DNA of 37,560 nt from an uncultured Sphingomonas sp. (GTDB lineage Bacteria > Pseudomonadota > Alphaproteobacteria > Sphingomonadales > Sphingomonadaceae). Below are positions 7,804 to 33,812 of the stretch, in pieces; position 1 is the first letter of the stretch; each line of letters opens with the position of its first letter. The notes beneath the pieces are model-generated. The model was given only the letters and a program-made list of their open reading frames with translations. It was not told the origin of the DNA and made no database searches. Position numbers and translations under genes: made by a program. The stretch spans positions 1 through 37,560 of the forward strand of contig CAMLSA010000022.1 of the NCBI GenBank assembly GCA_946482655.1, written 5' to 3'.

Positions 7804-7858
7804 GGGCGCTTCTCCTCCGTGATCGGAAATTCATCTGAAACACCGGAAGGGTGCCCAT

Positions 7859-9841: not shown

Positions 9842-9847
9842 GGCCTT

Positions 9848-11128: not shown

Positions 11129-11174
11129 GACGGATGATGCCGAAGGCTCCCGATCACCAGGCAAGGAACATTAT

Positions 11175-12479
11175 ATGCGTTTAGCGATCATCGGCACGGG
11201 CTATGTTGGGTTGGTATCGGGGGCGTGCTTTTCCGAGTTCGGCCATGAGGTGACATGCGTCGACATCAACGAGGCCACGATTGCGAAGCTGAAGGCGGGA
11301 GAAATCCCGATCTACGAGCCTGGGCTCGATGAGTTGGTCAAGCGCAATAGCCGCTTCGAGCGATTGAAGTTCACCAGCGACATTAAGGAAGGGGTGAAGG
11401 ACGCCGAGGCGGTGTTCATCGCGGTAGGGACGCCCTCCCGGCGTGGCGACGGCCATGCCGATCTCTCCTATGTCTACGCCGCCGCCCAGCAAGTGGCGGA
11501 GTCGGTGACCCGGCCTTGCGTCATCATCACCAAATCGACTGTGCCGGTAGGCACCGCCAAGCATGTCGCGGCGATCGTGGCCAAGGCCCGGCCCGAGCTG
11601 TCGATCGAGGTGGCCTCGAACCCCGAGTTCCTGCGCGAGGGATCGGCGATCGAAGACTTCATGCGCCCGGATCGAGTGGTGTGCGGAACATCGAGTGAGA
11701 GCGCCCAGCAAGTGCTGCGAGACATTTATCGTCCGCTGTCGCTGCGTGAGGTGCCGATCCTGTTCGTCGAGTGCGAAACCTCCGAAATGATCAAATATGC
11801 CGCCAATGCGTTCCTCGCGGTCAAGATCACCTTCATCAACGAGATCGCCGACCTGTGCGAAAGGACCGGCGCCAATGTCCAGAACGTCGCCAAGGGCATC
11901 GGCATGGACAACCGGATCGGCGGAAAATTCCTCCACGCGGGCCCCGGCTATGGCGGTTCCTGCTTCCCCAAGGACACAACCGCCTTGCTCAAGACCGCCG
12001 AGGACTATGAGACGCCGATGCAGATCGTGAAGGCGACGGTCGACGTCAACAACCAGCGCAAGCGGATGATGGGACGGCGGGTGATCGCGGCAGCGGGAGG
12101 CTCGGTCGACGACAAGAAAATCGCGCTGCTCGGCCTCACCTTCAAACCCAACACTGACGACATGCGCGACAGCCCCAGCATCGACATCGTCCGCGTCCTC
12201 CAGGACAATGGCGCCAAGGTCAGCGCCTTTGATCCCGAAGGCCGACGCCAAGCCGAGACCATGCTCGAAAATGTCGAGTTCGCCGAGGATGCCTATGATG
12301 CGATGGACGGCGCTGACGCGCTGGTCCTCGTTACCGAATGGAACGAGTTCCGGGCGCTCGATCTCGACCGCGTCAAGCGCCTGCTCAAGACACCGACCAT
12401 TGTTGACCTGCGTAACGTTTATAGACCAGAACAGATGAGCGCGGCTGGGTTCAACTACACCTCGATTGGTAGACCATGA
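11175..12479 (+). CDS. ugd: UDP-glucose 6-dehydrogenase
   Basis: 434 aa, the standard length. The N-terminal Rossmann motif is GTGYVG (MRLAIIGTGYVGLVSGACFS). The catalytic cysteine motif GGSCFPKDT has Cys at about residue 263, and the C-terminal UDP-binding domain includes GLTFKPNTDDMRDSPSI. It oxidises UDP-glucose to UDP-glucuronate with two NAD+, supplying a uronic acid donor in the cytoplasm. AAGGA lies upstream of the ATG. Its place in operon A2 suggests that polymer A contains glucuronate or a sugar derived from it. Confidence 0.97.
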   Translation: MRLAIIGTGYVGLVSGACFSEFGHEVTCVDINEATIAKLKAGEIPIYEPGLDELVKRNSRFERLKFTSDIKEGVKDAEAVFIAVGTPSRRGDGHADLSYVYAAAQQVAESVTRPCVIITKSTVPVGTAKHVAAIVAKARPELSIEVASNPEFLREGSAIEDFMRPDRVVCGTSSESAQQVLRDIYRPLSLREVPILFVECETSEMIKYAANAFLAVKITFINEIADLCERTGANVQNVAKGIGMDNRIGGKFLHAGPGYGGSCFPKDTTALLKTAEDYETPMQIVKATVDVNNQRKRMMGRRVIAAAGGSVDDKKIALLGLTFKPNTDDMRDSPSIDIVRVLQDNGAKVSAFDPEGRRQAETMLENVEFAEDAYDAMDGADALVLVTEWNEFRALDLDRVKRLLKTPTIVDLRNVYRPEQMSAAGFNYTSIGRP

Positions 12480-12518
12480 GGTAGGGATGAACACCGGCGC
12501 AAGCAGGGGAATGGGCGC

Positions 12519-13940
12519 TTGGAACCGAAATTGAAAAAGAGCGCATTGTCGCTCGGCGGCTGGGTGGTCGCGGCCGGAATGTCGGCCGCCGCGCATGGGC
12601 AGATGCCGCAGCCGGGAACGATCCCGGACTTGGGCGCTTCACAACCGCCCCGGCTTCCGGATTTGGGTGGAACTGCGCAAGGGGCGCCGACGCCCGCGAC
12701 CCAGCCGGTGACGACCACCCGCCCCCGGCCCCTCGCCCCGCCGGGGCAGATATTGCGCCCGCCGCCGCCGATCGGCTCCTATGTCCGCAGCGTCGCAGAT
12801 GAGCCACGGCCGGAGTGGGATCCGCTGGGCGTTCCGGTGGGGGCGCTGCTGATCTATCCGTCGTTGGGAATCGAAGCGCTGGGCAAGACCAATGTCCGCG
12901 CCACCGAAAACGGCCGTAGATCGGATGTGGCCGCAGTGGCGACCGCGGGGCTGGCGGCCGAGAGCAATTGGGGCCGACATTATGTCGGGACCGAAGGCTA
13001 TTACCGGCGAACCGAATGGGCGACGCTGGAGGATGAGAGCCGGTCCGAATTCGGCGCGTTGGCGCGCCTTCGCTACGACATAACTGCGATATCCAATCTA
13101 AGCGCGGTCGCCCAATTCGACCGGCTTACTCAGCCGCGCGAAGACATCAACGCGCCCGACAATGCCCGCATTCCGGCGCAGATTGACCGTATGCGCGGCA
13201 ATATCTCCTATCAGAGGGATAACGGTCTGACTTTGGTTGACGCCGATATCACGGTGGACCGCCGCACCTATCGCTCGACAGTCTCGTTCAACGGCAACAG
13301 AATCGATCAGAGCGCACGCGATTTCACACGATACCAGGGTTCACTCCGGGTGGGCTACGCGGTTTCCGGTTCGGCCTCGCTGATCGTCGCGGGCAGCCTC
13401 AACAAGCGCGTCTTCGACCGGCTTTCGGACGGGATCAACCGGAGTTCGAGCGGCGGAACTTTGGAGGCCGGTCTCTTGTTTCGTCCCAGTGATCTATTGT
13501 CGGCCGAAGTGAGGGCAGGCTATCTGATGCAAAACTTCAGATCGCCGCAGCTGAACGATGCGAAGGGATTGAGCCTGACCGCCAATGTCGTCTGGAATGC
13601 GCTGCCCCGCACCAGCTTTCGGCTCGAGGCGACACGGAGGGTCAGCGAGTCCAGCTCGTCGGTTGTCCAGTCTCAGATTCTCACGCGGGGAACCTTTGGT
13701 ATCGATCGGGAGATATTGCCAAATCTGATCGCCACCGTGGAGGCGAATTATGAGCATATCAATTACATCGGAATCGATCGGGACGCATCTCTCTACAGCG
13801 CCGCGCTCAAGGGCCGCTATCTGATGAGCAGACTCACCAGCGTGACCTTCTCGGTCGAACATGTCCGCCGCACGGCAACGGTATCAGCCGACCGATTTTC
13901 GGGACAGCAGGCAAGGATAGGGATCCGGTTCACGCTATGA
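12519..13940 (+). CDS. Outer-membrane beta-barrel protein of the EPS export system A
   Basis: 473 aa from TTG at 12519; a TTG at 12531 (giving MKKSALSLGG...) is an alternative start with a more usual signal peptide. A Pro-rich linker follows the signal peptide (roughly residues 28-90). The rest consists of alternating amphipathic strands with aromatic girdles and many N/D/R turns, ending in RIGIRFTL, a C-terminal beta-signal with a hydrophobic last residue pair. It resembles the BBP2_2/EpsL-type barrels found in EPS clusters. The presence of a short OPX (9260) in the same operon supports a role as the outer-membrane channel. It has a paralogue-like counterpart in system B (31862-33178). Confidence 0.82.
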   Translation: MEPKLKKSALSLGGWVVAAGMSAAAHGQMPQPGTIPDLGASQPPRLPDLGGTAQGAPTPATQPVTTTRPRPLAPPGQILRPPPPIGSYVRSVADEPRPEWDPLGVPVGALLIYPSLGIEALGKTNVRATENGRRSDVAAVATAGLAAESNWGRHYVGTEGYYRRTEWATLEDESRSEFGALARLRYDITAISNLSAVAQFDRLTQPREDINAPDNARIPAQIDRMRGNISYQRDNGLTLVDADITVDRRTYRSTVSFNGNRIDQSARDFTRYQGSLRVGYAVSGSASLIVAGSLNKRVFDRLSDGINRSSSGGTLEAGLLFRPSDLLSAEVRAGYLMQNFRSPQLNDAKGLSLTANVVWNALPRTSFRLEATRRVSESSSSVVQSQILTRGTFGIDREILPNLIATVEANYEHINYIGIDRDASLYSAALKGRYLMSRLTSVTFSVEHVRRTATVSADRFSGQQARIGIRFTL

Positions 13941-15959: not shown

Positions 15960-15963
15960 GTGA
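15642..15963 (+). CDS. Doubtful small ORF coupled to the GH16 gene
   Basis: About 106 aa from ATG 15642. It has no recognisable domain. The second half (from FMHLIHNDLKNSAIVHC to FFTKAERAGLIGRLAKL) uses mostly G/C third positions like its neighbours, and the stop overlaps the GTG start of the GH16 gene (GTGA), as in coupled genes. The first half is Arg/Cys-rich and looks non-coding. It could be a leader peptide gene, a decayed gene end or chance. No strong ribosome binding site was found. Confidence 0.2.
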
Positions 15964-17504
15964 AGCGATCGCACTGGATATGGGCGGCTGGACTGGCCGC
16001 CGCGGTGCTGCTGGCGATGGGGATGGCCTTGCTGCTCAGGGCCCCGCCCCAACCCAGGCCCGAGAAGCCCATTCGACCGCCACTCCCGTTGGTCGAGCGC
16101 CGTCCGGGACCCGAGGCGAAGAATGTGATCCTTGTGAGGGGTCGCGCCGGTCAGCGCGTCCGGGGTTCACCGCTCGACGACAAGCTTGTGGAGAAAAGCC
16201 AGGGTTCGATCCTGATCGGCCTCGGCGGTAACGACACCTATCAGGCCCCCGACGAGAGGACCCGCATCGTCGAGCGCCCCGGCCAGGGCATCGATACGAT
16301 CGAGACATGGAACAGCTTCAAGGTGCCGCCGCACGTCGAGAACCTGGTCCTCGTAGGCCAATATTCGACCGGTACCGCCGCGCGCGGCGGTTCACTGCTG
16401 ACCAGCAAGGGGCTGGCAAATGTTCTAGAAAGCGGGCCGGGAAGCGACACCATGATCGCCGACCCGGAGGCGAAACAAACGGTCTTCCTGTTCCACCCGG
16501 GTTCGGGGGTCGACGCAGTGTTCAACTTCGAGGCGCAAGGCGACTCGCATGACTACATCCGATTGACCTATCCTGGCCTTTGTGATTTCGCGGAGGTCAG
16601 GCAGCGGCTGACGCCCCTGGGCGGCAACGATACGCTGCTAACGCTCACCCCGCGCGACAAGATCCTGATCAAGGGCATTCGCCCCGCCGCTTTGCGATCC
16701 GAGCATTTCCTGCTTTGCTTCATGCCGGACGAGATGGAGCTGGTGTTCGAGGACCAGTTCGACACGCTTTCGCTTTATGATCGGCACAGCAAGACCGGCC
16801 GATGGAAGACCGCCTATATCCATGCTCCCGCCGATGGGCAGAAATCGCTCGATGCCCGCCGGCTCACCGGCAACGATGACCAGCAGATCTATGTCGACCC
16901 CGCCTATGCCGGCAATCCGGCCGTCTCGGCGCTCCCCCTTGGGCTCAACCCGTTCAGCGCCGCCGACGGGATGCTCTCGGTCCGTGCCTGGCGCTTGCCG
17001 CCTGAGAAGCGCGCCAAATTGTGGGGCATAAACTTCGCCTCGGGGCTGCTCACCAGCGAACCCAGCTTCACCCAAACCTATGGCTATTATGAAATCCGCG
17101 CCGAGCTGCCCCAGGTCAAGGGGATGTTCCCCGCCTTTTGGCTGCTGCCAGCGTCGGGGAAATGGCCGCCCGAGATCGATATCATGGAGAATGTCGCCCA
17201 GGATTTCGTGACCTGCGGCATGGTCCTACCCGAAAGGAAGCTCGCCTTCTTCGTCCGATTCCATGGCGGCGTGCGGGGCATGCACCGCTATGGCGTGCTG
17301 TGGACACCCAGCCGCATCAGCTGGATATTCGACGGCCAGGTGGTCGGCTCCACGGCGACCCCGCCATCGCTGAACCAGCCCATGTACATGCTGCTCAACC
17401 TCGCCGTCGGCGGAAAATGGCCGGGATCTCCTCGACCCGATTTCCGTTCGGCGGAGATGAAGGTCGATTATATCCGCGTCTATCGTTGGGACGCACCCAA
17501 ATGA
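15960..17504 (+). CDS. Membrane-anchored GH16 glycoside hydrolase with N-terminal degenerate RTX-like module
   Basis: 514 aa. An N-terminal anchor or signal segment (WIWAAGLAAAVLLAMGMALL) is followed by a Pro-rich linker. Residues of about 55-255 form a module related to hemolysin-type Ca-binding proteins (GLGGNDTYQAPDERTRIVERPG), with few intact nonapeptides. The C-terminal GH16 beta-jelly-roll runs from about 260 to 510 (MELVFEDQFDTLSLYD; TYGYYEIRAELPQVKGMFPA). The catalytic motif EIDIME is complete: E405, D407, E410. GH16 enzymes cleave beta-1,3/1,4-glucans or related EPS, as ExsH and ExoK do for succinoglycan. The start is GTG at 15960 and the stop overlaps the next gene (ATGA). It is a paralogue of 34027-36741 but lacks the C-terminal RTX repeats. 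It probably trims EPS in the periplasm. Confidence 0.9.
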   Translation: MKRSHWIWAAGLAAAVLLAMGMALLLRAPPQPRPEKPIRPPLPLVERRPGPEAKNVILVRGRAGQRVRGSPLDDKLVEKSQGSILIGLGGNDTYQAPDERTRIVERPGQGIDTIETWNSFKVPPHVENLVLVGQYSTGTAARGGSLLTSKGLANVLESGPGSDTMIADPEAKQTVFLFHPGSGVDAVFNFEAQGDSHDYIRLTYPGLCDFAEVRQRLTPLGGNDTLLTLTPRDKILIKGIRPAALRSEHFLLCFMPDEMELVFEDQFDTLSLYDRHSKTGRWKTAYIHAPADGQKSLDARRLTGNDDQQIYVDPAYAGNPAVSALPLGLNPFSAADGMLSVRAWRLPPEKRAKLWGINFASGLLTSEPSFTQTYGYYEIRAELPQVKGMFPAFWLLPASGKWPPEIDIMENVAQDFVTCGMVLPERKLAFFVRFHGGVRGMHRYGVLWTPSRISWIFDGQVVGSTATPPSLNQPMYMLLNLAVGGKWPGSPRPDFRSAEMKVDYIRVYRWDAPK

Positions 17505-18592
17505 GCCTTTCCACACCCCTGCGGATCGCGAGCCCCGAGGATATCGTCCGTGCGCGCATGGCCATCGAGCACGACGCTGTGATGGTCGACGCGCGCCGGC
17601 TCAAGACAACCGGTCTGCTGCCCCTCGCGCTCAAATATGCGCTGTTCGCGGTGCGCGAGGGTGGACGGATCCTGATCGAGGACGAGGCGGACGGTGACAT
17701 GGGCAGCCCCGCCTTCGTGGTTCCGCACAAGCTGGTGCGGCAATGGACCTTCCAGTTCATAGGCCGGGACGTGGAACTGCTGTCGCTCGACCCACCCGGT
17801 CGAATCGAGTTGCGGCGCACTAGGCCGGTCACGCCGCCGGGCTGGTCCGCCGGCATCGTCTTTTCGGGCCGCGATGCCGAGATTCCGACTCTTCTCAAGG
17901 CGCTGGAAGGGTTGCACGCCCAGCCCGAGTTGACCGGCGGCGGCGAGGTCGTGGTGTGCGGACCGCCGCGCGACCTCGGCTTCCTCGATGGCTTCCCCGC
18001 CGTCCGCTATGTCGAGCATGTCGACTCCCCGGGCGAGCGGGTGATGATCGCGGCCAAGAAGAACGCGCTGATCCGCACACTGGTGGGCCCGCGCATCCTG
18101 ATTCTCCACGCCCGCGTGGTACTCGCGCCCGGCGCGCTCGCGGCGGTACCGCGCGAGTTCGACCTGTCGGGGCCGAACGTGCTGCAGCAGGCGGGGGGGC
18201 GGTCCGCCAGCTATCTTTCACTCGGCAGCACCGAGACGGTGTGGCCCGGGCGAATGCCGCGTCGGACACCTTGGCTGATGCGGCATGCCGGCGACGATCC
18301 CATCGCATTGCACCGCAAGGGCCACTTGTTCATCGACGGCGGCGCCTTTTACGTCACCAAGGCGGCGCATGAGATCTGTCCGCTCAACGACCTGATCGCC
18401 TGGAACGAAGCCGAGGATGTCGAGTGGTGCGCGCGGGCCTTCGTTCAGGGTCTGCTGGTCGACATCGCGCCCGACAGCATCGCGGTCTCGCAAACCGCCA
18501 AAATCCGTCTGCCTCCAAAACTCGGCTTCGCCACCACGCCGCTGCTCCGGTTGCTCAAGAGGCTGCGCGAAGCCCGGGCGCGCTTGCGCTGA
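17501..18592 (+). CDS. Putative GT-A-type glycosyltransferase with an N-terminal methyltransferase-like segment
   Basis: 363 aa, coupled to the GH16 gene by an ATGA overlap. Residues 1-110 resemble the end of a SAM-methyltransferase fold (LKYALFAVREGGRILIEDEA), without a visible SAM-binding glycine motif. Residues from 112 on look like a GT-A domain: GIVFSGRDAEIPTLLKALEGL, EVVVCGPP, then KKNALI (186-191) and ILILHAR (199-205). In related putative glycosyltransferases the last element reads HDY or HDR and supplies the metal-binding Asp; here the Asp is Ala204. The protein may therefore be inactive, metal-independent or of a different function. The end overlaps the convergent nucleotidyltransferase gene by 38 bp. 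Family assignment is tentative. Confidence 0.6.
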   Translation: MSLSTPLRIASPEDIVRARMAIEHDAVMVDARRLKTTGLLPLALKYALFAVREGGRILIEDEADGDMGSPAFVVPHKLVRQWTFQFIGRDVELLSLDPPGRIELRRTRPVTPPGWSAGIVFSGRDAEIPTLLKALEGLHAQPELTGGGEVVVCGPPRDLGFLDGFPAVRYVEHVDSPGERVMIAAKKNALIRTLVGPRILILHARVVLAPGALAAVPREFDLSGPNVLQQAGGRSASYLSLGSTETVWPGRMPRRTPWLMRHAGDDPIALHRKGHLFIDGGAFYVTKAAHEICPLNDLIAWNEAEDVEWCARAFVQGLLVDIAPDSIAVSQTAKIRLPPKLGFATTPLLRLLKRLREARARLR

Positions 18593-20243
18593 TCGGATTC
18601 GGACGCGGCGGAACGAGCGCAGCATAGCGTGCCTCCAGCGCGCGTACCGCCGAACGCGGCACGCGGCTGTCCCCTTCGAGCCGATAGGGGCTGCCCGCCC
18701 ATTTGTGGAAGCAGGACTGCCAATATTCGAAGGTCTTGAGATCGTTGGGCGTGCCCCAGCCGAGATAATGATCGATCTCGAACAGCGCGACCTTCATGCC
18801 GAGCGCAAGCGCATCCTCGACCAGCGAATCGACATAATATTCGCCGTTCACGGTCGCGCCGCGCTCGCGCAGATGGGTATAGGCGCGGGTGAAGCCGGCG
18901 AGCCTGCGGAAAGTGAAGGCACCGACGATCATCGGCGCGGTCGCGGGATCATCGGGCGGCCGCTTGACACGAACGCCGGTCACCGCTCCAACGCCGTCGA
19001 CATCGACCCAGCCGAACATCTGCGGCCGGATGCGGCCGTCGGCATGCCCGCGCACGACCCAGACGAGCAGATCGGCATCCCCTTGGGACAACGCCGCCTC
19101 GAACGCGATACTGTCGTAGAGCATCGCGTTGTCACAGGCCCCGATCGTCAGCGGCGCGTCGGGATCGAGGCCATCGAGTCCGGCGGCGCAACTGGTCGCC
19201 TGGCCATCGGTCGGTCCGTCGAGCACAACCGCCGAGGCGCCGACGAAGGAGGTGCGCAGCTTCATCCTGATCTCGTCGATCTGGTCGAGGTCACGCCTCA
19301 GCACGAAGCGTGTCGCGGGGGCGTCGGGCAGGTCGCGCGTCGCCTGGATCACCATGGGACGGCCCGATACCGGAATCAGCGGTTTGGGCAGCTCATAGCC
19401 GGCATCGGCGAAGCGCTTGCCGAGCCCGGCCATCGGCACGAGCACCGATCCGCCCTGCCGCGCGCGGCGGCCGTCGTCTATCGCCAGCCGGCGGAAGGCG
19501 TCCGACCAGCCCTTATATTCTTCGAGGTCGGCGGGTGTGCCCCACTGCATGAAATGTTGGACTTCATAGACGGCAACCGGCAGCGCACGCCGGGCGAGAA
19601 CCTTGTAGGCCAGGCTGACATAATATTCGCCGTTCACGCTGAGATCGCGTTCGAGCACCTCTTCAAAGGCGCTGAGGCACAGCGCGCCGGTCTCGAAATA
19701 ATATCCGCCGGTCGAGGCATACTCGTCGATTGGATCATCGGTATAGGGTTTCTTTTCCTGGATGTCCTCGAGCCACAGCCCCTGCTGGCGGATATAGGCG
19801 TAGAAGGTCGAGCCGAGGCTGTGCGGATGAAAGCCGCGATAGGCGGGCACGGCCCCGGCGCAGCCGGTCTCGGCGGTGAAACGCCGGAAATCGGCCCAGT
19901 CCCAATAGCAGGTGAAGTCGCAATAATTGACGTAGACCGGCCCATCCGTGCGAATGTGCTGGCGCGCCTTGAGCACCGCGCCGATCGGGCCGGTCTTGTG
20001 CGAGGGGATGCCGATTATCCGGCCCTTCGGGCAATAGCGGCGGATGAGTTCGGCCATTCGATAGGCCGGCTCGGCCAGGTGATCCTCGTTGCAGATGAAC
20101 AGGAAGTCGGTTTCGCCGGGGAACATGTCTATGACATGGGCGATGATCGGTTTGCCATCGACCAGGATCAGCGGCTTGGGAACGTCATAGCCTGCGCGGC
20201 GAAAGCGCTCTCCGAAACCGGACATCGGGATGACGATCTGCAT
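18555..20243 (-). CDS. Tandem (two-domain) sugar nucleotidyltransferase-like protein
   Basis: 562 aa made of two homologous nucleotidyltransferase domains. Domain 1 (about 1-265) starts IVIPMSGFGERFRRAGYDVP followed by KPLI; domain 2 (about 285-525) starts VLVPMAGLGKRFADAGYELP followed by KPLI. Both retain the G-x-G-x-R-F and PKP signatures and an Asp candidate for metal binding (NYCDFT; GACDNA). Each also ends with a matching block (VNGEYYVSLAYKVL with QHFMQWGTPADLEEY; VNGEYYVDSLVEDAL with DHYLGWGTPNDLKTFEY). The usual enzyme is a single domain of 230-290 aa that makes NDP-sugars from a sugar phosphate and NTP. The two copies may use different substrates or form an internal dimer. It lies downstream of the class II aldolase gene in the same direction (12-bp gap). 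Confidence 0.88.
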   Translation of the reverse strand: MQIVIPMSGFGERFRRAGYDVPKPLILVDGKPIIAHVIDMFPGETDFLFICNEDHLAEPAYRMAELIRRYCPKGRIIGIPSHKTGPIGAVLKARQHIRTDGPVYVNYCDFTCYWDWADFRRFTAETGCAGAVPAYRGFHPHSLGSTFYAYIRQQGLWLEDIQEKKPYTDDPIDEYASTGGYYFETGALCLSAFEEVLERDLSVNGEYYVSLAYKVLARRALPVAVYEVQHFMQWGTPADLEEYKGWSDAFRRLAIDDGRRARQGGSVLVPMAGLGKRFADAGYELPKPLIPVSGRPMVIQATRDLPDAPATRFVLRRDLDQIDEIRMKLRTSFVGASAVVLDGPTDGQATSCAAGLDGLDPDAPLTIGACDNAMLYDSIAFEAALSQGDADLLVWVVRGHADGRIRPQMFGWVDVDGVGAVTGVRVKRPPDDPATAPMIVGAFTFRRLAGFTRAYTHLRERGATVNGEYYVDSLVEDALALGMKVALFEIDHYLGWGTPNDLKTFEYWQSCFHKWAGSPYRLEGDSRVPRSAVRALEARYAALVPPRPNPISASAPGLRAAS

Positions 20244-20255
20244 GGTCAGCGGGGA

Positions 20256-21308
20256 CTACTGCCGAGCGGCATCAATGTTCCGCCGATAATGTTCGGCCTC
20301 CCAGCCCGCGAGCAAGGCGACATCCGATGCCGACAGCCCACAGATCGGAGCTCCGATCGGCAGGCGGCGCGCGACCTCGATCAGGCCTCCCAGCATCGCC
20401 TCAGTCGCGGGGGTACGGCTATTCGCCGCGACGGCCCCGAGGCCCGGCCGCATCAGCACCGCCGGGCTGACGCCCGTTTCCGACCGCACCCGCGCGACCG
20501 CGTCGGAGGGGCTCTCCTCCGGCTTCCAGAGTGGAAGCGGTCCGCCCAGGAAGACGACCTGATCGGGGAGCAGCGTAAAGCGGGTGAGCGCCGCCGAGGC
20601 CGTGGCGTCGAACGCCCAGGCGGACAGCAGCTCGTGCTGCTCGAACATGGGATCGTCCGATCGGATTCGCGTTTCCAGCGCCGGCGGCTCCCTCGCCGGC
20701 AAAGCCAGGCGCCGTTCGACGTCGATCAACAGCGCCTCGGCCCGCGCAAAATCGCTCCCCCCGACGACGACACCGTGATTCTGGAGAAGCAGGATATCCG
20801 CAGGACGCGCCGCCAGCGCGGCATTGACCGCCCGCGCGAGAGGGGCGCCGGGACGCTTATAGGGAATCCATTCCCAGGCCAGCCCGGCCAGCCGCTCGGA
20901 TGCGCGGGCGCGACCGTCGGCGAGCACCGAGGTTGCCATGGCGTTGACCGCATGGGCATGGACCACCACCCGATGCGGCATGATCGCGTGGAGCATCGTC
21001 TCGATCGACGGCCGCAGACCCGCCGCGTTGCGTGCCGCGATCACCGCCTCGGCCGGGGCCTCGTCAAGCGGTCTCCCGCGGCTGTCGCGCAGCGCGCGCG
21101 CCGCCAATGGGACGAAGATCGGCTTGGCTTCGGCCTCGGCCAACCACTGCCCCGACGCCTTGACCCAGAGCTCCTCGCCATCCTTGATCGAGCTGTTGCC
21201 GCCCGGCCCCTGGACGAGCAGGCGATCGGCGCCGATCCGCGCCGACATCCGTGCAAGTCCCGATAATAAATCAGCGCCGATCATGGATCGAAACTGACGC
21301 TTGTGCAT
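20256..21308 (-). CDS. Class II aldolase/adducin family protein with C-terminal extension
   Basis: About 350 aa. The class II aldolase fold is shown by GPGGNSSIKDGEELWVKASG, RPSIETMLHAIM, VVVHAHAVNAMAT (Zn-binding His pair) and LLLQNHGVVVGG (third His). Typical members (fuculose-phosphate aldolase) have 210-230 aa. Here about 130 residues follow (FTLLPDQVVFLGGPLPLW and onward), as in the aldolase half of longer RhaD/short-chain-dehydrogenase fusions. ATG 21308 is used; ATG 21284 (MIGADLLSGL) is equally possible, and TTG 21320 is the longest option. It would make or cleave a small phosphorylated sugar, or decarboxylate one. It is divergent from the GDPD-like gene and precedes the tandem nucleotidyltransferase, suggesting a shared pathway. 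Confidence 0.85.
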   Translation of the reverse strand: MHKRQFRSMIGADLLSGLARMSARIGADRLLVQGPGGNSSIKDGEELWVKASGQWLAEAEAKPIFVPLAARALRDSRGRPLDEAPAEAVIAARNAAGLRPSIETMLHAIMPHRVVVHAHAVNAMATSVLADGRARASERLAGLAWEWIPYKRPGAPLARAVNAALAARPADILLLQNHGVVVGGSDFARAEALLIDVERRLALPAREPPALETRIRSDDPMFEQHELLSAWAFDATASAALTRFTLLPDQVVFLGGPLPLWKPEESPSDAVARVRSETGVSPAVLMRPGLGAVAANSRTPATEAMLGGLIEVARRLPIGAPICGLSASDVALLAGWEAEHYRRNIDAARQ

Positions 21309-21327
21309 TGGCAATGTCAACGCGGCG

Positions 21328-21342
21328 TGTTGCGCTGCAACA
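21328..21342. promoter_or_regulatory. Perfect palindromic site in the divergent intergenic region (candidate operator)
   Basis: TGTTGC-GCT-GCAACA, two perfect 6-bp arms around a 3-bp spacer. It lies in the roughly 110 bp between the start of the class II aldolase gene (minus) and the GDPD-like gene (plus). Such a site is typical of a dimeric repressor or activator controlling both directions. No regulator gene is seen in the window, so the binding protein is unknown. Confidence 0.4.
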
Positions 21343-21417
21343 ACGATCCGGCGCGTTGTCGGCCGAACTCATCGGCTCGTTGCGCATCCGGCACGAATAG
21401 CTGCGGGGATTGGGGAA

Positions 21418-22002
21418 TTGGAAATCATCGCGCACCGACGCAACCGAATCGAAGAGTTGGTTGCGACCCCCGCCGAACAAGGAGTCGAGGTCGACATCAG
21501 GAGCGACGGCGGTCGGCTGGTGATCCATCATGATCCCTTCGCCGAGGGCGAGGAGTTCGACAGGTGGATCGATCATTATCGGCACGGCACGCTGATCCTC
21601 AACGTCAAGGAGGAAGGACTTGAAGGCCGGCTGCAGGCGATCATGGGTGATCGCGGCATCGATCGTTTCTTCTTCCTCGACCAGAGCTTTCCCTTTCTCA
21701 TCCGCACCGCCCGACAGGGGGAACGCCGCTCGGCCGTCCGTGTTTCCGAATATGAATCTGTCGAGACCGCGCTTGCTGTCGCGCCTCTGGTCGACTGGGC
21801 GTGGGTCGACTGCTTCTCGCGCTTCCCGCTCGATCGGATCTCCGCGGCAAGGCTGGTCGAAGCCGGGCTCAAGCTGTGCGTGGTCTCGCCCGAGCTGCAG
21901 GGCCGCTCCGCCGACGAAATCGATATCCTGCGTGAGCTTCTGGCCGCCGAGGACATCCAGGCCGACGCGGTCTGCACCAAACGGCCCGATCTATGGGCCT
22001 GA
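21418..22002 (+). CDS. GDPD-like (glycerophosphodiester phosphodiesterase-type) protein
   Basis: 194 aa from TTG 21418, preceded by GGGGA; longer frames start at 21301 but their first 40 residues look non-coding. The motifs of the GDPD TIM barrel are present: IIAHRRN (HR), VEVDIRSDGG (E-x-D), LVIHHDPF (HD), and LILNVKEEG in the place of the family's ExK strand. The ordinary enzyme is about 240-260 aa, so this one is short. The family hydrolyses phosphodiesters between glycerol phosphate and an alcohol. Related short proteins in capsule loci may instead act on phosphodiester-linked sugar substituents. Its stop overlaps the next gene by 10 bp. Confidence 0.75.
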   Translation: MEIIAHRRNRIEELVATPAEQGVEVDIRSDGGRLVIHHDPFAEGEEFDRWIDHYRHGTLILNVKEEGLEGRLQAIMGDRGIDRFFFLDQSFPFLIRTARQGERRSAVRVSEYESVETALAVAPLVDWAWVDCFSRFPLDRISAARLVEAGLKLCVVSPELQGRSADEIDILRELLAAEDIQADAVCTKRPDLWA

Positions 22003-23975
22003 GCCCGCTGCTGACGTCGCGGTCGTTCGCCAAGGGGCTTGCCGGCCGGGTTGGTTTCATTCTCGTGCTCGTCGTCCTCGCGGCCAGCACGGCCGAAGTT
22101 CCGTGGCCCTTTCCGGGCGGCTGGACAGGCCTGCTGGTGCCGCCGTTTTCCGCGCTCGCCTTCGGCTTCCCCGCCGTTCCGCTGGTGGCGATCCCCGCCC
22201 TCACCGCATTGTTCGGCGCCTGGTGGCCCGGCGCTCTGATCGCGCTGTTTCTCTGCGATCTCGCCTGCTATCTGTGCCTGGCCTCCTATGGCAGCACTGA
22301 GCGACGGCACGAAGTCGCAGGTCTCTACTGGACCTCGCCGCTCGCCGTCCTGCTCATCTATGGCTGCGGCACGGCGGCGGTGTTTCCGCTGGCGCTGCTG
22401 CTTGGGGCTTTCCTGTGCCTCGAACGGCGCCGTCGAGCCGGCGCCGGGCTGCTCTACGGCCTCGCTGTCGCGGCCCAGCCCGTGTTGATCGCATTGCTCC
22501 CGCCGCTGCTGCTTTTTGCCCAGGGCACCCACCGGCTCGATCAGGGCGCAGGCCGGCTGCTCGGGACGCTCGCGCTGGCGCTGCTGCTCGGGATCGCGCT
22601 TTCGATCGGCGACGTCAGCTATCGTGCCTTGATCGCGCATGACTTCGTCGGTCTTGCCGGCCCGCTGCTGCCGGTGATGGGCGGCGGAGTGGCACTGCTG
22701 CCGCTGCTGCTGCTCGCCATCTATTATGCCGCCTGGCGCGCACGGCTGCTCGATCGCGAGCTGCTGTGGACCTGCTCCACCCTGGCGGCGCTCGCGCTCG
22801 CCGGGCTCGGCGGCCCCAGTGCGTCGACGGCTCTTATCGCCCTTCCGTTCCTCGCCAGCCATGCCGCCTATGCCGAACGATCGGGCCGGGCGCTGCTCGC
22901 ACTCTATTCCGTGGTGATGTTCGGCGCGATCTGGTTCACGGCGGGCCGAGGCGCGGGCGCCGATCCTTCGGCGGTGTTCTGGCCCACCCTGGCGGCGGGA
23001 ACGGCGCTGCTGATCGGGTTTCAGATCTACCAACGCGGCTATCTGCGCTCGCCCGCCTGGCTGGCGATGCGGCGCCCGATCGCCATCGGCATCGCCGGTG
23101 ACAGCGGGGTCGGCAAGGACACGCTGGTGGCAGGCGTCGCGGGCCTGTTCAGCCGCAAGCTGCTCGCCCAGATATCGGGCGACGACTACCATGTCTGGGA
23201 TCGGAACAAGCCTATGTGGCGAGCGCTGACGCATCTCAATCCCAAGGCCAACGACCTGGACGGCTTCGGCCGTCACATCCGTGACCTCGCCGACCGGCGC
23301 TGGATCAAGGCGCGTCATTACGACCATGGCACCGGGCGGATGACACGGCCGACCAAGACCGATCCCGGCGACATCGTCATTGCCTCGGGGCTGCACGCGC
23401 TCTGGTCCCCCGAGCTCAACCGGCTCTACGACCTGCGCATCTTTCTCGACATGGACGAAGAACTGCGCCGCCACCTCAAGATTCGCCGCGATGTCCACGA
23501 GCGCGGCCATCCGCTCGAACGGGTCACCACCTCGATCGAGCGCCGCCATCAGGACGCGGTGAGCTTCGTCCACCCGCAAAAGGCCGTGGCACACATCGTG
23601 TTCCGGCTCGAACCGCGGCGGCCCGAAGCAATCGAAGGAAGTCAGGCCGTCGGTGCGGACAGCCGGCCGGTACCGCTGCGGCTGATCGTCGAGGCGGTAC
23701 CGGGCATCGTCTTCAACCGCCTCGCGCGGACGCTGGTCGCGCTGTGCGGGGTTCAGGCCATCGAGGTGCCGCGCCCCTCGGGCGCGACCCGCCTGATCAT
23801 CGAGGGCGATCCGGCGCCCGAAGATATCGTCGCCTCTGCCCGCCGCATCGCCCCGGCCATGTGCGCGATGGTGCGACGCGCCCCCGAATGGCAAGACGGC
23901 TTGCGCGGCATCATGCAGTTGATCATGCTCGATCAGCTCGAGCAGGTTTACCGGCGCAGGAGCGTCAACGCATGA
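21993..23975 (+). CDS. Fusion of polytopic membrane domain and uridine-kinase-like P-loop domain
   Basis: 660 aa. Residues 1-350 hold about 9-10 hydrophobic segments, in a layout like GT-C/GT87-type membrane glycosyltransferases, though no catalytic Asp motif could be fixed. Residues from about 360 onward are a uridine-kinase/phosphoribulokinase-like domain: IAIGIAGDSGVGKDTLVAGV (Walker A at 369-376), then ISGDDYHVWDRN, LDGFGRHIRDL, and DIVIASGLHAL (Walker-B-like region). LYDLRIFLDMDEELRRHLKI resembles the LID region with its Arg residues. A soluble kinase fused to a membrane domain is unusual. It may phosphorylate a small sugar or polyol at the membrane. ATG 21993 overlaps the previous gene, and the stop overlaps the HAD gene (ATGA). 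Confidence 0.8.
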   Translation: MGLSPLLTSRSFAKGLAGRVGFILVLVVLAASTAEVPWPFPGGWTGLLVPPFSALAFGFPAVPLVAIPALTALFGAWWPGALIALFLCDLACYLCLASYGSTERRHEVAGLYWTSPLAVLLIYGCGTAAVFPLALLLGAFLCLERRRRAGAGLLYGLAVAAQPVLIALLPPLLLFAQGTHRLDQGAGRLLGTLALALLLGIALSIGDVSYRALIAHDFVGLAGPLLPVMGGGVALLPLLLLAIYYAAWRARLLDRELLWTCSTLAALALAGLGGPSASTALIALPFLASHAAYAERSGRALLALYSVVMFGAIWFTAGRGAGADPSAVFWPTLAAGTALLIGFQIYQRGYLRSPAWLAMRRPIAIGIAGDSGVGKDTLVAGVAGLFSRKLLAQISGDDYHVWDRNKPMWRALTHLNPKANDLDGFGRHIRDLADRRWIKARHYDHGTGRMTRPTKTDPGDIVIASGLHALWSPELNRLYDLRIFLDMDEELRRHLKIRRDVHERGHPLERVTTSIERRHQDAVSFVHPQKAVAHIVFRLEPRRPEAIEGSQAVGADSRPVPLRLIVEAVPGIVFNRLARTLVALCGVQAIEVPRPSGATRLIIEGDPAPEDIVASARRIAPAMCAMVRRAPEWQDGLRGIMQLIMLDQLEQVYRRRSVNA

Positions 23976-24721
23976 AGATCTTCCGGCCCGAGTTGTTCGC
24001 AAAGCGCCCCGCCTGCGTTCTGCTCGACCTCGACAACACGCTTTACGCCTATGAGCCCTGCCATGTCGCCGGCATCGAATCGGCGCGCAACCTTGCCCAG
24101 CAGAGCCTCAACCTCGCCGCCGCCGACTTCGATCGCTGCTTCGCCGACGCCCGGTCCGAGATCAAGAACCGGCTCGGCGACCAGGCGGCGTCGCATCATC
24201 GCCTGCTCTATTTCCAACGGATGCTGGAACGCGCCGGGCTCGCCAGCCGCCCGTTCGAGGCGCTCCAGCTCGAGCAGGCCTATTGGCGCGCCTATATCGA
24301 TGGTGCGCGGCTCTTCCCGCACGTCATGGACTTCCTCGACGATCTCAGGCTGAGCGATATCCCCGCGGTCATTGTCACCGACCTTACCGCCGAGATCCAG
24401 CTCCGCAAGATGATCGCGCTGGATCTCGATGCCCGCGTCGACTGGATAGTGACGTCGGAGGAGAGCGGCCGCGACAAACCGCATCCGGCGAGCTTTGAAC
24501 TGGCGCTGGCGAAGCTGGGCGGCGTCGAGGGTCCGGTCTGGATGATCGGCGACAATCATCATTGCGACCTGGTCGGCGCCAAGCGCGCGGTCGGCGCGAT
24601 CACGCTCCAGAACGTCCAGCCGGGAACCACGCCCGCGCCCGATGGCTGTCCCGATACCGATGGGCGCTTTACCTCGTTCGCCGATCTGCGGCGCCTGTTC
24701 GATCAGCTTCCCGAGGACTGA
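23972..24721 (+). CDS. HAD-superfamily phosphatase (pyrimidine 5'-nucleotidase/YjjG-like)
   Basis: 249 aa. All four HAD motifs are visible: motif I LLDLDNTLYAYEP (nucleophile D19, acid D21), motif II VIVTDLT, motif III Lys in GRDKPHPASF, and motif IV MIGDNHHCDLVGAK. The helical cap between motifs I and II is of the type seen in SDT1/YjjG pyrimidine nucleotidases. It removes phosphate from a small phosphorylated metabolite in the cytoplasm. It is coupled to the kinase fusion gene (ATGA overlap) and ends 19 bp into the convergent flippase gene. In this context it probably dephosphorylates an intermediate of the same substituent pathway. Confidence 0.9.
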   Translation: MKIFRPELFAKRPACVLLDLDNTLYAYEPCHVAGIESARNLAQQSLNLAAADFDRCFADARSEIKNRLGDQAASHHRLLYFQRMLERAGLASRPFEALQLEQAYWRAYIDGARLFPHVMDFLDDLRLSDIPAVIVTDLTAEIQLRKMIALDLDARVDWIVTSEESGRDKPHPASFELALAKLGGVEGPVWMIGDNHHCDLVGAKRAVGAITLQNVQPGTTPAPDGCPDTDGRFTSFADLRRLFDQLPED

Positions 24722-26154
24722 GCACCTTCACGGCGCCTGAGCCAGCCCAGCGCCATGGCCGCATCCGACCGCGCCACGCCGTCGAACGCGAGCAGCGCCG
24801 CTACATAGAAGCTGCCGCCGAGTGGAATCAGCCATAGCAGGCGCAAACCCGCCGATCGATAGTCGGGAACCATCGCCTGAACCGCGATCATGCCGACAGC
24901 CATGACGGCAGCGGCCAACAGCGAACCGCGCATCGCGCGCCACTGATCGGCGAGGCCGATCTCCGCGCGGCTGCGCATCAGCCAGGCCGACCAACTGAGA
25001 AACGGCAGGGCTCGGAGGCTCCAGCCGATGGTGGCGGGCAGCAGCCCGAAGGGGGCGCCGATCGCCGCTCCGCCGAGCGACAGCAGGCTGGCCTGCAACT
25101 GCACCACCAGATTAATCCTGGGCGCGCCGATCGAAGTGAAGACGATCTCGCACAACTGACGGGCCATGATCAACGCCATCACCAGACAGATGATCAACAT
25201 GGCCGGCGCGACGCCGGCCCAGCGCGTCCCGACGAACAGAACCAGCACCGGCTCGGCGCAGACTCCGAGACCGACGAACATGGGCACGAGCAGGAAAGCC
25301 GCGCGCCGTGTCCCGATCGCCCAGGCACGCGCCAGCCCTCGACGATCGGCTTGGCGCCGAGCATAGATCGGCAGGGCGAACTGACCGATCGTCGTCGCGG
25401 CCATGGTCTGGAGCGGCTCGACGAAGCGCATCGCGACATTCCAGCCGCCCGCCGCGACCGGCCCAATAAAGCCGCCAACCAGCAAGGTGACGATCCGGCT
25501 GTTGGCATAGAGGAGGAACTGACTGCCCATCGTCGGCATCGCGAAGCGCAGCAGTTCACCGAGCGACGTACGATCGAGCCCGAGCTTGAGCGGCTCCTTG
25601 GTCGTCAAAAGGAGGAAGATCGCCGACAGCAGCGCCGACAGGACGAACTGCGCCGCTACCGACCAGATGCCGGCTCCCGAGAAAGCCAGAGCCAGTCCGA
25701 TCACGGTGGCGATCGAACGGGCGCTGACCGTCCGGATCGCGAGCAGCCGGAACTCCATACGCCGCCGGGCGAGAGCCGCAGGCACCGCCATCAGCCCCGA
25801 ACCGATCAGCGCGACCCCGAACCAGGGCAGGCAATCGGCGAGCAGGGGTGCGCCGAACATGACCGCCGCCAGCGGCGCGCCTATCCACAGCAGCAGGGCG
25901 AGCAACAGCGCCCACAGCAGGGTTGCGGCAGTGGCGGTGCGGACGTGCCGATCGAGCAGATCCTCGCGCTGGATCAGAGCGTCGTGGAACAGGCTCTCGA
26001 TCATCGGGGTCGCGATCTGGGCCAGGCTCAGCGCCAATGCCGCCGCGCCATATTCAGCCGAGGGCAACAGCCGCGCGGTCACCACGAAGAAGACGAATGC
26101 GAAGATCGCTGCACTGGCATTGTCGAGGAGAAGCCAGGCCCCCCGGGTCGTCAT
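24703..26154 (-). CDS. Wzx-like lipopolysaccharide/EPS flippase, system B
   Basis: 483 aa with about 12-14 predicted membrane segments and the RfbX/MVIN-like N-terminus (LLLDNASAAIFAFVFFVVTA, then RLLPSAEYGAAALALSLAQI). The middle block LRFAMPTMGSQFLLYANSRIV is typical of flippases that export lipid-linked repeat units. It is the last gene of operon B and starts with an ATGA overlap with the polymerase gene. It is longer than, and clearly different from, the system A flippase (9848-11128), which supports a second substrate. Confidence 0.9.
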   Translation of the reverse strand: MTTRGAWLLLDNASAAIFAFVFFVVTARLLPSAEYGAAALALSLAQIATPMIESLFHDALIQREDLLDRHVRTATAATLLWALLLALLLWIGAPLAAVMFGAPLLADCLPWFGVALIGSGLMAVPAALARRRMEFRLLAIRTVSARSIATVIGLALAFSGAGIWSVAAQFVLSALLSAIFLLLTTKEPLKLGLDRTSLGELLRFAMPTMGSQFLLYANSRIVTLLVGGFIGPVAAGGWNVAMRFVEPLQTMAATTIGQFALPIYARRQADRRGLARAWAIGTRRAAFLLVPMFVGLGVCAEPVLVLFVGTRWAGVAPAMLIICLVMALIMARQLCEIVFTSIGAPRINLVVQLQASLLSLGGAAIGAPFGLLPATIGWSLRALPFLSWSAWLMRSRAEIGLADQWRAMRGSLLAAAVMAVGMIAVQAMVPDYRSAGLRLLWLIPLGGSFYVAALLAFDGVARSDAAMALGWLRRREGAQSSGS

Positions 26155-27473
26155 GGCAGGGACGGCTGGAGCCGCTGTGCCGCTTGATCCCCTTCATCGG
26201 AATCCTTGTTGGGATCGGCTTCCCCGTCGCCGTCCGCTATTCGCAGCAGACTGGCGAAGAACAGCAGCGGCAAGGCGTATATGCCGACCGACAACCCGCC
26301 GCCTCCGATCATATAATAGACGAAAACGCCCCAGGCGATCACCAGCGAAGGACCCCCGCCAAAGATGCAGGCCAGAATGAAGGCGTAAAAGGCGATGCCG
26401 ACCAGCAAGCCATATTCGTTGACCAGCTTGGTCACCCCCAGGCTGTTGTGGCCCGGATCGCTGAGCGTGCTGCCGCTGCCCGAGCCGGTGATCAGCTGTT
26501 CGTCGCGCGTGGTCAACCGATCGACCATTTCGCTGATGGGCTGGGTATAGCGGATATAGCCGCTTGTTCCTGGCTGCGTGAACTCGCTTGCGCGCGCGGC
26601 GATCTGATCCACCCAGCCGACCGCCTGGGCGACCGGCAGGATCACCACCAGCGCCGCCAGCGTGAAAGGCAGGACTCGCTTGCCCAGCCGGACGATCGCG
26701 AAGGGCAGCGACAGCACCAGCACCAGCAGTCCCGAGCCGGCGAGCGTCAGGAGCAGGCCGGCCGCGAAGGCAATCAGCCACAGGAGCCGCCGAAACAGCG
26801 CGATCTCGACGATCAGCGCGATGGCGAGAAATTGCGACGTGATCGAAGGCTCGAGGAAGAAGACGCCATTGGGCATGAATATGCCCGAACCGTAGGACGT
26901 TTCCCGGAGGTAGTTATATCCCGGCACCAGCAGCTTCTCCGGCACCATCCTGTTGAGATCGGGCCAATGCTGGGAGCCTATGGTGAACTGCACCACCTGC
27001 TGCGCGGCAACGATTGCGCAGACTACCAGCATCCCGATCTGAAATATGTCGAGAACGCGCCGATAGCTTTCGCGCGAGACCGGCAGCACGAAGATGAACG
27101 GGCAATAAAGCGCAAGCACTATGATGGCGGCGGTCAAGGCCCAGTGCTGCTGCGACATCGATTGACTCACCATCATCGTCGCCAGGAGAATGGTGAGCAG
27201 GCACAGCCGTGTCGCGCTCACCATCAGCGCCGCGCGGAACGCAAGGACGCCGAGCACTCCATAGGTCAGGATGAGTACCAGCTCGACGTGGCTACCCGCG
27301 GCCGGCACACCGATCTTCTGGCCAAAGATCATCGCGAGCAGCACGAGCCCTACCAGCCCCACGATCCAGGTCCGATCGCGGCTGGCTTCGTTCACTTCTC
27401 CAGGAGGCGCGGCCACCTCATAGCGGGGCATTGTCACGTCCGACGGGAAGGATGCGGGGTAAAGCGTGGCCAA
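26151..27473 (-). CDS. O-antigen polymerase/ligase-like membrane protein (Wzy-like), system B
   Basis: Up to 440 aa with about 10-12 membrane segments. A large periplasmic loop (about residues 290-350) contains TRDEQLITGSGSGSTLSDPGHNSLG before the final helices (GLLVGIAFYAFILACIFGG), as in Wzy-type proteins. The start is uncertain: TTG 27473 lies 7 bp after the preceding gene, while ATG 27431 (MPRYEVAAPPGEV) is also before the first membrane segment. Sequence identity with the system A polymerase looks very low. It would polymerise the repeat unit made under the ExoY-like transferase. The role is inferred from topology and neighbours. Confidence 0.75.
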   Translation of the reverse strand: MATLYPASFPSDVTMPRYEVAAPPGEVNEASRDRTWIVGLVGLVLLAMIFGQKIGVPAAGSHVELVLILTYGVLGVLAFRAALMVSATRLCLLTILLATMMVSQSMSQQHWALTAAIIVLALYCPFIFVLPVSRESYRRVLDIFQIGMLVVCAIVAAQQVVQFTIGSQHWPDLNRMVPEKLLVPGYNYLRETSYGSGIFMPNGVFFLEPSITSQFLAIALIVEIALFRRLLWLIAFAAGLLLTLAGSGLLVLVLSLPFAIVRLGKRVLPFTLAALVVILPVAQAVGWVDQIAARASEFTQPGTSGYIRYTQPISEMVDRLTTRDEQLITGSGSGSTLSDPGHNSLGVTKLVNEYGLLVGIAFYAFILACIFGGGPSLVIAWGVFVYYMIGGGGLSVGIYALPLLFFASLLRIADGDGEADPNKDSDEGDQAAQRLQPSLP

Positions 27474-31855: not shown

Positions 31856-31861
31856 GCAAGA

Positions 31862-33178: not shown

Positions 33179-33222
33179 TGTCGCTCCCTTTTGCGAATAC
33201 CCCTCCCCTGCTTCTTTTGTGA

Positions 33223-33795: not shown

Positions 33796-33812
33796 ATTGC
33801 TTGATTCCACCA

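What the first reader, a model, noticed from the sequence alone, without database searches (positions are those of the whole stretch)
18555..24721. Candidate new pathway module: tandem nucleotidyltransferase, class II aldolase, GDPD-like, membrane-kinase fusion and HAD phosphatase
Five non-standard genes sit between two complete EPS export sets, with operon-like overlaps (21993/22002, 23972/23975) and a shared divergent control region. The families together (aldolase to make or cleave a small sugar phosphate, kinase, HAD phosphatase, nucleotidyltransferase to activate it, phosphodiesterase-fold protein) fit synthesis of a nucleotide-activated phosphorylated substituent, such as a polyol or short sugar phosphate, added to the polymer. 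No known pathway (CDP-glycerol, CDP-ribitol, methyl phosphoramidate) matches this set in what I can recall. The function is inference.
Basis: partly seen in the sequence, partly recalled or inferred. Interest (0 to 1): 0.8.

Follow-up and report, generated by a model that had tools for sequence, protein, structure and literature searches.

The report
Conserved unknown sugar-donor gene module
Five neighbouring genes in a bacterial slime-polymer cluster belong to a widespread but apparently undescribed set that probably builds an activated sugar unit with enzymes resembling those of ribulose bisphosphate metabolism.

Summary
At 18555-24721 lie a double nucleotidyltransferase (NT2), a class II aldolase (ALD), a GDPD-fold protein, a membrane/phosphoribulokinase-like fusion (KIN) and a HAD phosphatase.

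Elsewhere the set normally also carries GtrA and a polyprenyl-phosphate-type GT2. The window shows neither, and its KIN keeps 5 of 17 conserved membrane-domain sites (150 of 191 KIN proteins keep 16-17) while the kinase residues remain. So the five look like the donor-synthesis core, here reused in a Wzx/Wzy-type EPS cluster.

Nearest families point to pentulose phosphate chemistry: kinase to phosphoribulokinase, HAD to a haloarchaeal RuBP 5-phosphatase, ALD to ketose-1-phosphate aldolases. A variant cassette joins GDPD, GT2 and double NT with an FBP-type aldolase, ribulose-5-P 3-epimerase and another HAD. Product, nucleotide and the GDPD step are unknown. Ten paper searches in an open-licence library found no description.

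The parts
18555..20243 (-). NT2: tandem nucleotidyltransferase, 562 aa; N domain about 19494-20243, C domain about 18558-19478; both with intact G-x-G-x-R / K / Asp motifs
   Evidence: motif residues invariant in 57 of 57 aligned
20256..21308 (-). ALD: class II (FucA/RhaD-type) aldolase with about 150-residue C-terminal extension; ATG 21308 (alternative TTG 21320)
   Evidence: three His, Glu and the assumed phosphate-site residues invariant in 63 of 63 aligned
21309..21417 (.). divergent intergenic region, 109 bp
   Evidence: sequence; no promoter test was made
21418..22002 (+). GDPD-fold protein, 194 aa, probable TTG start
   Evidence: H7, R8, E25, D27, H39, N63, K65 (numbering) invariant in 72 aligned apart from one truncated row; the neighbouring H38 in 59 of 72
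21993..23060 (+). KIN membrane domain (GT-C/GT87-like in relatives), eroded here: 5 of 17 conserved sites kept
23067..23975 (+). KIN phosphoribulokinase-like domain (residues 359 on) and C-terminal region
   Evidence: PRK substrate-site residues kept in 187-191 of 191
23972..24721 (+). HAD phosphatase, 249 aa, nearest named family RuBP 5-phosphatase
   Evidence: catalytic-type residues kept in 74-76 of 76 aligned

Best explanation
The five genes are the donor-synthesis core of a widespread glycan-modification cassette. Shown by comparison: the five genes travel together, and in most loci found they come with GtrA and a DPM/GtrB-like GT2 that would load a sugar onto the lipid carrier, and with KIN fused to a GT-C-like domain that would use it in the periplasm. 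Inferred: KIN phosphorylates D-ribulose 5-phosphate (or a close ketose phosphate) at C1; HAD removes the distal phosphate, giving a ketose 1-phosphate; ALD acts on that ketose 1-phosphate by retro-aldol or aldol chemistry; NT2 makes a nucleotide-activated unit; the GDPD-fold protein cleaves or transfers a phosphodiester or pyrophosphate on the same route. In the window the lipid-carrier half has been lost, so the activated unit is probably used directly by a cytosolic glycosyltransferase of the Wzx/Wzy-type EPS cluster.
For: Co-occurrence: 59 of 80 loci carry all five, all within 12 kb; for two of three loci lacking NT2 and ALD nearby that I checked, those two genes lie together elsewhere in the genome. 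GDPD-first searches gave 15 strong hits; of the 8 genomes new to this set, 7 have KIN within 2 kb and 6 of these have all five in the stretch read. Split of the cassette: GT2 is found in 59 of 61 loci with at least 14 of 17 membrane-domain sites; the acidic site D123 is kept in 68 of 68 loci with GT2 and lost only in the window and L066, neither of which has GT2. The whole genome of L066 has no GT2 match at 1e-10, yet there the five core genes stand contiguous beside a flippase-like gene. Chemistry: best solved relatives of the kinase are phosphoribulokinases (2.9e-35; chains named uridine kinase 1.6e-27 or weaker); residues equivalent, by motif spacing, to the Ru5P/ATP-site residues named in PMC5241800 are kept in 187-191 of 191. 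23 of 23 module HADs scanned match the RuBP 5-phosphatase model, and for the window it is best by 118 bits. Variant L096 has GDPD, GT2 and double NT with a protein carrying FBP-aldolase and ribulose-P 3-epimerase domains and a P-loop, beside another HAD.
Against: No product, substrate or nucleotide is shown. A ketose 1-phosphate is not an anomeric phosphate, so a DPM-type GT2 could not use its NDP ester directly; a step is missing or the substrate differs. The window's genome is not held, so GtrA and GT2 may lie outside the window. The link between membrane-domain erosion and GT2 loss is not strict: of 14 loci with fewer than 14 sites (the window counted), 9 have GT2, and 5 of the 7 loci without GT2 keep D123, several of them on short contigs. 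The residue that I recall as the PRK Walker-B Glu is Ser in 168 of 191 KIN. HAD scores 194 bits against a cut-off of 330, and the 23 also match several generic HAD models; the ribulose-1-phosphate aldolase model matches only 6 of 22 ALD, weakly. Of 6 genomes checked, ALD is missing from 4 that have KIN; NT2 from 1 of 3; GDPD from 1 of 3. The role of GDPD is unknown.
Confidence: 0.5

Rival explanations
1. Heptose-type logic on an aldose: KIN phosphorylates the anomeric hydroxyl of an aldose phosphate, HAD removes the distal phosphate, NT2 makes an ordinary NDP-aldose, and ALD supplies the precursor.
For: Same enzyme order as the ADP/GDP-heptose routes (recalled); the DPM-like GT2 of most loci belongs to a kind that needs an anomeric donor (family knowledge); NT2 has weak sequence matches to solved 6-deoxy-heptose pathway enzymes; L054 also carries heptose-type genes, recognised by eye.
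Against: PRK/uridine-kinase enzymes phosphorylate primary hydroxyls (family knowledge); PRK substrate residues are kept; HAD is nearest to RuBP phosphatase; the variant has a ribulose-P 3-epimerase domain.
Confidence: 0.2
2. Polyol or sugar phosphate donor: NT2 makes a CDP-linked open-chain phosphate that is transferred as a phosphodiester; GDPD edits or releases such diesters.
For: A sister GDPD family lies near NT genes in other glycan clusters, two of them with LicD-like genes recognised by eye (L123, L124); NT2 has weak IspD-type similarity; a ketose 1-phosphate fits this chemistry better than a glycosyl donor.
Against: No LicD- or TagF-type transferase among the 35 window ORFs scanned with Pfam; no reductase among the five core genes; GT2, GtrA and GT-C-like partners in most loci point to glycosyl transfer. 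LicD-type genes were not searched for systematically in the loci.
Confidence: 0.2
3. Carbon or nucleoside salvage module (pentose bisphosphate degradation) that merely sits near EPS genes.
For: KIN, HAD and ALD resemble enzymes acting on Ru5P, RuBP and Ru1P, the last two known from the haloarchaeal non-carboxylating pentose bisphosphate pathway.
Against: Conserved linkage to two NT domains, GT2, GtrA and a GT-C-like domain; sporadic distribution (3 of 397 genomes) and plasmid carriage fit a surface-glycan cassette better.
Confidence: 0.06

Closest known systems
Gtr-type O-antigen modification cassettes (GtrA flippase, GtrB, serotype-specific GT-C; recalled)
   Same: Of 59 loci with all five genes, 58 carry a GtrB/DPM-like GT2 and 44 GtrA; KIN has a GT-C/GT87-like half
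   Different: Ordinary Gtr cassettes use a housekeeping NDP-sugar (recalled); these carry their own donor route. The window shows no GtrA or GT2 and has lost most GT-C-like sites
Non-carboxylating pentose bisphosphate pathway of haloarchaea (PMC9700705; passages seen, part of the abstract among them)
   Same: RuBP 5-phosphatase-like HAD and class II aldolase; RuBP as the assumed intermediate
   Different: PRK-like kinase instead of R1P kinase and R15P isomerase; linked to glycan genes, not nucleoside degradation; scores below the family cut-offs
Phosphoribulokinase (cyanobacterial, archaeal; PMC5241800 and PMC9978339, passages seen)
   Same: Kinase domain and Ru5P-site residues
   Different: Fused to a membrane domain; Ser at the assumed Walker-B Glu in 168 of 191; Rubisco genes were not searched for
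ADP/GDP-heptose and CDP-ribitol/CDP-glycerol donor pathways (recalled)
   Same: Kinase, HAD and NT logic, or NT acting on sugar or polyol phosphates
   Different: Different kinase and HAD families; no isomerase, reductase or TagD-type enzyme among the five core genes

Membership tests
Gtr-type lipid-carrier glycosylation cassette | GtrA flippase gene | tested here: not met
   No GtrA match in the 37.6-kb window; rest of the genome not held. GtrA in 44 of the 59 loci with all five genes
Gtr-type lipid-carrier glycosylation cassette | GtrB/DPM-like GT2 gene | tested here: not met
   No match in the window; rest of the genome not held. GT2 in 58 of the 59 full loci
Gtr-type lipid-carrier glycosylation cassette | intact periplasmic GT-C enzyme | tested here: not met
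   Window keeps 5 of 17 sites chosen for conservation; their roles are not known
Phosphoribulokinase | PRK-type catalytic base and Ru5P-site residues | tested here: met
   Equivalents of D42, H45, R49, Y98, H100, K165, R168, R173 in 187-191 of 191, mapped by motif spacing (roles in part, numbering in part recalled)
Phosphoribulokinase | score above the NCBIfam phosphoribulokinase cut-off | tested here: not met
   178.7 bits against 236
Phosphoribulokinase | activity on Ru5P | not testable with these tools
   needs enzyme assay
RuBP 5-phosphatase (NF053830) | score above family cut-off | tested here: not met
   194 bits against 330, though best hit by 118 bits
Ribulose-1-phosphate aldolase (NF053831) | score above family cut-off | tested here: not met
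   23 bits against 300
GDPD superfamily | GDPD TIM-barrel fold | tested here: met
   Foldseek top hits are GDPDs, 3ks5 2.2e-7
GDPD superfamily | His, Arg, Glu-x-Asp, His, Lys catalytic set (recalled) | tested here: met
   invariant in the 72 aligned apart from one truncated row; the usual E of E-x-K (recalled) is N
CDP-glycerol/CDP-ribitol donor pathway | TagD/TarI-type transferase, reductase and TagF-type polymerase | tested here: not met
   none named among the window ORFs scanned with Pfam or NCBIfam

The most novel reading that the evidence does not exclude
A so far unknown nucleotide-sugar pathway: a membrane-anchored phosphoribulokinase makes ribulose 1,5-bisphosphate for glycan decoration rather than CO2 fixation, a phosphatase turns it into ribulose 1-phosphate, and aldolase, double nucleotidyltransferase and a GDPD-fold enzyme convert this into a new activated glycan unit, spread across many phyla as mobile glycosylation islets.
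Probability: 0.35. Interest if true: 0.85.

Novelty: new variant of a known kind. Interest (0 to 1): 0.68.

Why it matters
A conserved gene set found in several bacterial phyla, an archaeal MAG and E. coli plasmids, with no description found in my searches, would add a new route to an activated sugar and a use of phosphoribulokinase-like chemistry outside carbon fixation and nucleoside salvage. The cases that keep the five-gene core without GtrA and GT2 suggest which enzymes make the donor, so the pathway can be tested in vitro with five proteins or domains.

Tried and rejected
Rejected: a chance grouping (59 of 80 loci); an innovation of this EPS type (most relatives found carry GtrA and GT2); ALD as an AraD-type 4-epimerase (it has the catalytic-type Glu of aldolases, 63 of 63; that AraD has Asp is recalled); a simple uridine kinase (PRK scores higher).

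Led nowhere: ten paper searches ran and one was rejected. Five asked for the gene set, three for possible products (21, 68, 76), two for related enzymes (15, 90). None of the listings names the cassette; the library holds open-licence papers only. A profile search of GDPD against PDB sequences gave nothing better than E 0.12. Five phage records matched KIN, over at most 26% of it, in the kinase part. A glycosyltransferase-like gene convergent to NT2 (17501-18592) resembles one gene near a sister NT/GDPD/HAD set in L097 (pairwise 1e-8), but matched no other locus held then.

Limits: the 80 loci were chosen by KIN similarity (best 80 of 350 relatives), and 10 of the 21 incomplete ones are under 13 kb. 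Family alignments for motif counts were gathered with the window proteins as queries. The 17 membrane-domain sites were picked from conservation, not from a structure. ORFs in loci were called mechanically; LicD, cupin, WavE, heptose, flippase and housekeeping labels in loci were recognised by eye. G1187, G1062 and G1076 were judged to be loci already held from their contig lengths. KIN proteins under 600 aa (P0005, P0019, P0044 and short locus copies) were left out of the 191.

One search recounted weakens that link (9 of 14 low-site loci have GT2); strengthen it (D123; no GT2 in the genome of L066).
Full report
Observation. The window is a polysaccharide cluster with two export sets: Poly_export, Wzz-type and beta-barrel genes at 6394-13940 and 29687-33813, plus flippase, Wzy_C, glycosyltransferase and GH16 genes. 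Between them lie the five genes of the finding. NT2 and ALD run on the minus strand; GDPD, KIN and HAD on the plus strand, with start/stop overlaps. The GDPD gene is shorter than the mechanical ORF: the alignment and sequence support TTG 21418. It has no Pfam or NCBIfam hit, but an AlphaFold2 model (mean pLDDT 95.7) is closest to glycerophosphodiester phosphodiesterases. No whole genome is held for the window.

Conservation. A profile of KIN fetched the best 80 of 350 related loci from one-genome-per-species data. tblastn with the window proteins found all five in 59 of 80, always within 12 kb (median span 7.2 kb); 46 of the 55 loci of at least 18 kb are complete. Commonest orders are NT2-GDPD-KIN-HAD-ALD (37) and ALD-NT2-GDPD-KIN-HAD (13). 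Of the 21 incomplete loci 10 are under 13 kb. For some of the others I checked the genome: NT2 and ALD lie together elsewhere for L060 and L065, but neither is found for L049; ALD was also not found in the genomes of L054, L074 and L077; GDPD was found at a contig edge for L015, weakly for L026, not for L035. L068 and L072 were not checked. The catalytic-type residues of ALD, HAD, GDPD and both NT domains are invariant or nearly so.

An independent view. A GDPD profile was run on 398 genomes of the phylum of L003, 277 of the phylum of L079, 321 of the class of L018 and 245 of the class of L074; some genomes recur between runs. It hit 7, 4, 5 and 4 genomes: 15 strong hits (E below 1e-80) and 5 weak ones (1.7e-27 to 2.5e-21). 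Leaving out four seed genomes and three whose contigs match loci already held, 8 genomes with strong hits are new. KIN lies within 2 kb of GDPD in 7 of the 8; all five genes are within the fetched stretch in 6 of these 7; the seventh (L099) shows no NT2 or ALD there. The eighth, G413, is the variant described below. The cassette is sporadic: 3 of 397 genomes of the family of L003, 2 of 147 of its order, and plasmids in 2 of 5426 E. coli genomes in a DNA-level search in which the matches covered 57% of the query.

What is usually added. Between NT2 and GDPD many loci carry a GtrA protein and a GT2 of about 233 aa (PF04138, PF00535); by tblastn 58 of the 59 full loci have GT2 and 44 have GtrA. 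An E. coli plasmid shows the set under NCBI names: nucleotidyltransferase, GtrA, GT2, PI-PLC/GDPD family, uridine kinase, HAD, class II aldolase and a hypothetical protein, with IS26 copies on both sides, one frameshifted. Azospirillum and Hirschia plasmids carry versions. In Yersinia proxima, Pseudomonas piscis and Polymorphobacter the flanks look like housekeeping genes, judged by eye. This is the layout of a Gtr-type glycosylation islet that brings its own donor synthesis.

Core without the lipid-carrier half. The N-terminal half of KIN is named glycosyltransferase 87 in some relatives. I chose 17 of its conserved sites. Of 191 KIN proteins, 150 keep 16 or 17; the window keeps 5, and its 16 nearest relatives of at least 600 aa keep 2-10, although their kinase domains are 57-91% identical to the window's. 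Of 61 loci with at least 14 sites kept, 59 encode GT2. The rule is not strict: of 14 loci with fewer sites (the window counted), 9 have GT2, so part of the low counts is plain divergence. Seven loci have no GT2 match: the window, L001, L066, L075, L070, L015 and L019; of these L001, L019, L070 and L075 are on short contigs, and L015's GDPD ends at a contig edge. Single sites are clearer: D123 is kept in 68 of 68 loci with GT2 and lost only in the window (Ala) and L066 (Glu); K156 is kept in 68 of 68 and lost only in the window and L001. A search of the whole genome of L066 (Polynucleobacter meluiroseus) found no GT2 at 1e-10, and that of L001 (Methylobacterium longum) only a 33% match over half the length. 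In L066 ALD-NT2-GDPD-KIN-HAD are contiguous, beside a flippase-like gene. So where the lipid-carrier half is missing, the five genes can stay. I infer that these five, GDPD included, make the donor. In the window's own genome GtrA or GT2 could still lie elsewhere.

Chemistry. The kinase domain's closest solved relatives are phosphoribulokinases (2.9e-35). Residues equivalent, by motif spacing, to those given for Ru5P and ATP binding in PRK (passages of PMC5241800 and PMC9978339; part of the numbering recalled) are kept in 187-191 of 191; the Glu that I recall as Walker-B is Ser in 168. The HAD's best named family is the haloarchaeal RuBP 5-phosphatase (194 bits, next 75; cut-off 330), matched by 23 of 23 members scanned, as are several generic HAD models. 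That enzyme yields ribulose 1-phosphate, on which a class II aldolase acts to give DHAP and glycolaldehyde (PMC9700705, passages). ALD matches ketose-1-phosphate aldolases of the RhaD and FucA kinds in sequence and fold, and the named ribulose-1-phosphate aldolase model only weakly (6 of 22). So three enzymes of one gene set have nearest relatives that act on Ru5P, RuBP and ketose 1-phosphates. The assignment is by similarity, not by assay.

The variant. In G413 (L096) GDPD (54% identical to the window's), a GT2 and a double NT stand beside a 1276-residue protein with a P-loop, an FBP-type aldolase domain (8.6e-8) and a ribulose-phosphate 3-epimerase domain (2.1e-25), a different HAD and a TylF-type methyltransferase. 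That the P-loop is a kinase is my reading; Pfam gives only weak P-loop matches below cut-off. FBP-type aldolases prefer the threo and FucA-type the erythro ketose (recalled), which would explain why the epimerase appears here. This is the best independent hint of pentulose chemistry. Weaker sister GDPDs lie near NT genes in other glycan clusters, two of them with LicD-like genes and one also with an epimerase-like gene, recognised by eye.

What is open. A ketose 1-phosphate is not a glycosyl phosphate, yet DPM-type GT2 enzymes use anomeric donors. Either the substrate differs (heptose-like logic on an aldose), or NT2, ALD and GDPD carry out a conversion not seen before, or the activated unit is an open-chain phosphate. 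I cannot decide between these. The sequence data support the unit, its role in donor synthesis and its link to ketose phosphate enzymes, in falling order of certainty.

Noticed in passing
window 17501-18592 (+): Glycosyltransferase-like gene (by eye; its longer ORF has no Pfam or NCBIfam hit), convergent with NT2; a relative (pairwise 1e-8) lies in L097 near a sister NT/GDPD/HAD set. Candidate user of the donor.
   Followed up: partly
L096 975-10101 (G413:C15): Variant cassette with a protein carrying P-loop, FBP-type aldolase and ribulose-P 3-epimerase domains next to GDPD, GT2 and a double NT.
   Followed up: partly
L097, L121, L122, L123, L124: A sister GDPD family lies within about 6 kb of NT genes, in four of the five also next to a beta-PGM-like HAD, in capsule-like clusters, some with LicD-like or WavE-like genes (labels by eye).
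   Followed up: partly
L084 6022-14984 (NZ_CP145712.1): Complete cassette on an E. coli plasmid from human stool, between IS26 copies and beside a broken AIDA-repeat gene.
   Followed up: partly
L012 (Candidatus Regiella insecticola): Cassette broken by insertion sequences and with split ORFs.
   Followed up: no
L120 4496-6090 (G1482): The two NT domains are separate neighbouring ORFs here, so the fusion is not universal.
   Followed up: no
window 34027-36741 (+) and 15960-17504 (+): Two GH16 proteins, one with RTX calcium-binding repeats, one in each half of the EPS cluster.
   Followed up: no
window 3191-5131 (-): Acyltransferase-3 fused to an SGNH domain, likely polymer acylation.
   Followed up: no
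window 26151-27473 (-): 440-aa ORF in the EPS cluster with no Pfam or NCBIfam hit.
   Followed up: no
L054 3403-13403: Heptose-type genes (HddA-, GmhA- and GmhB-like, by eye) in the same cluster as NT2, GDPD, KIN and HAD; no ALD found in that genome.
   Followed up: partly
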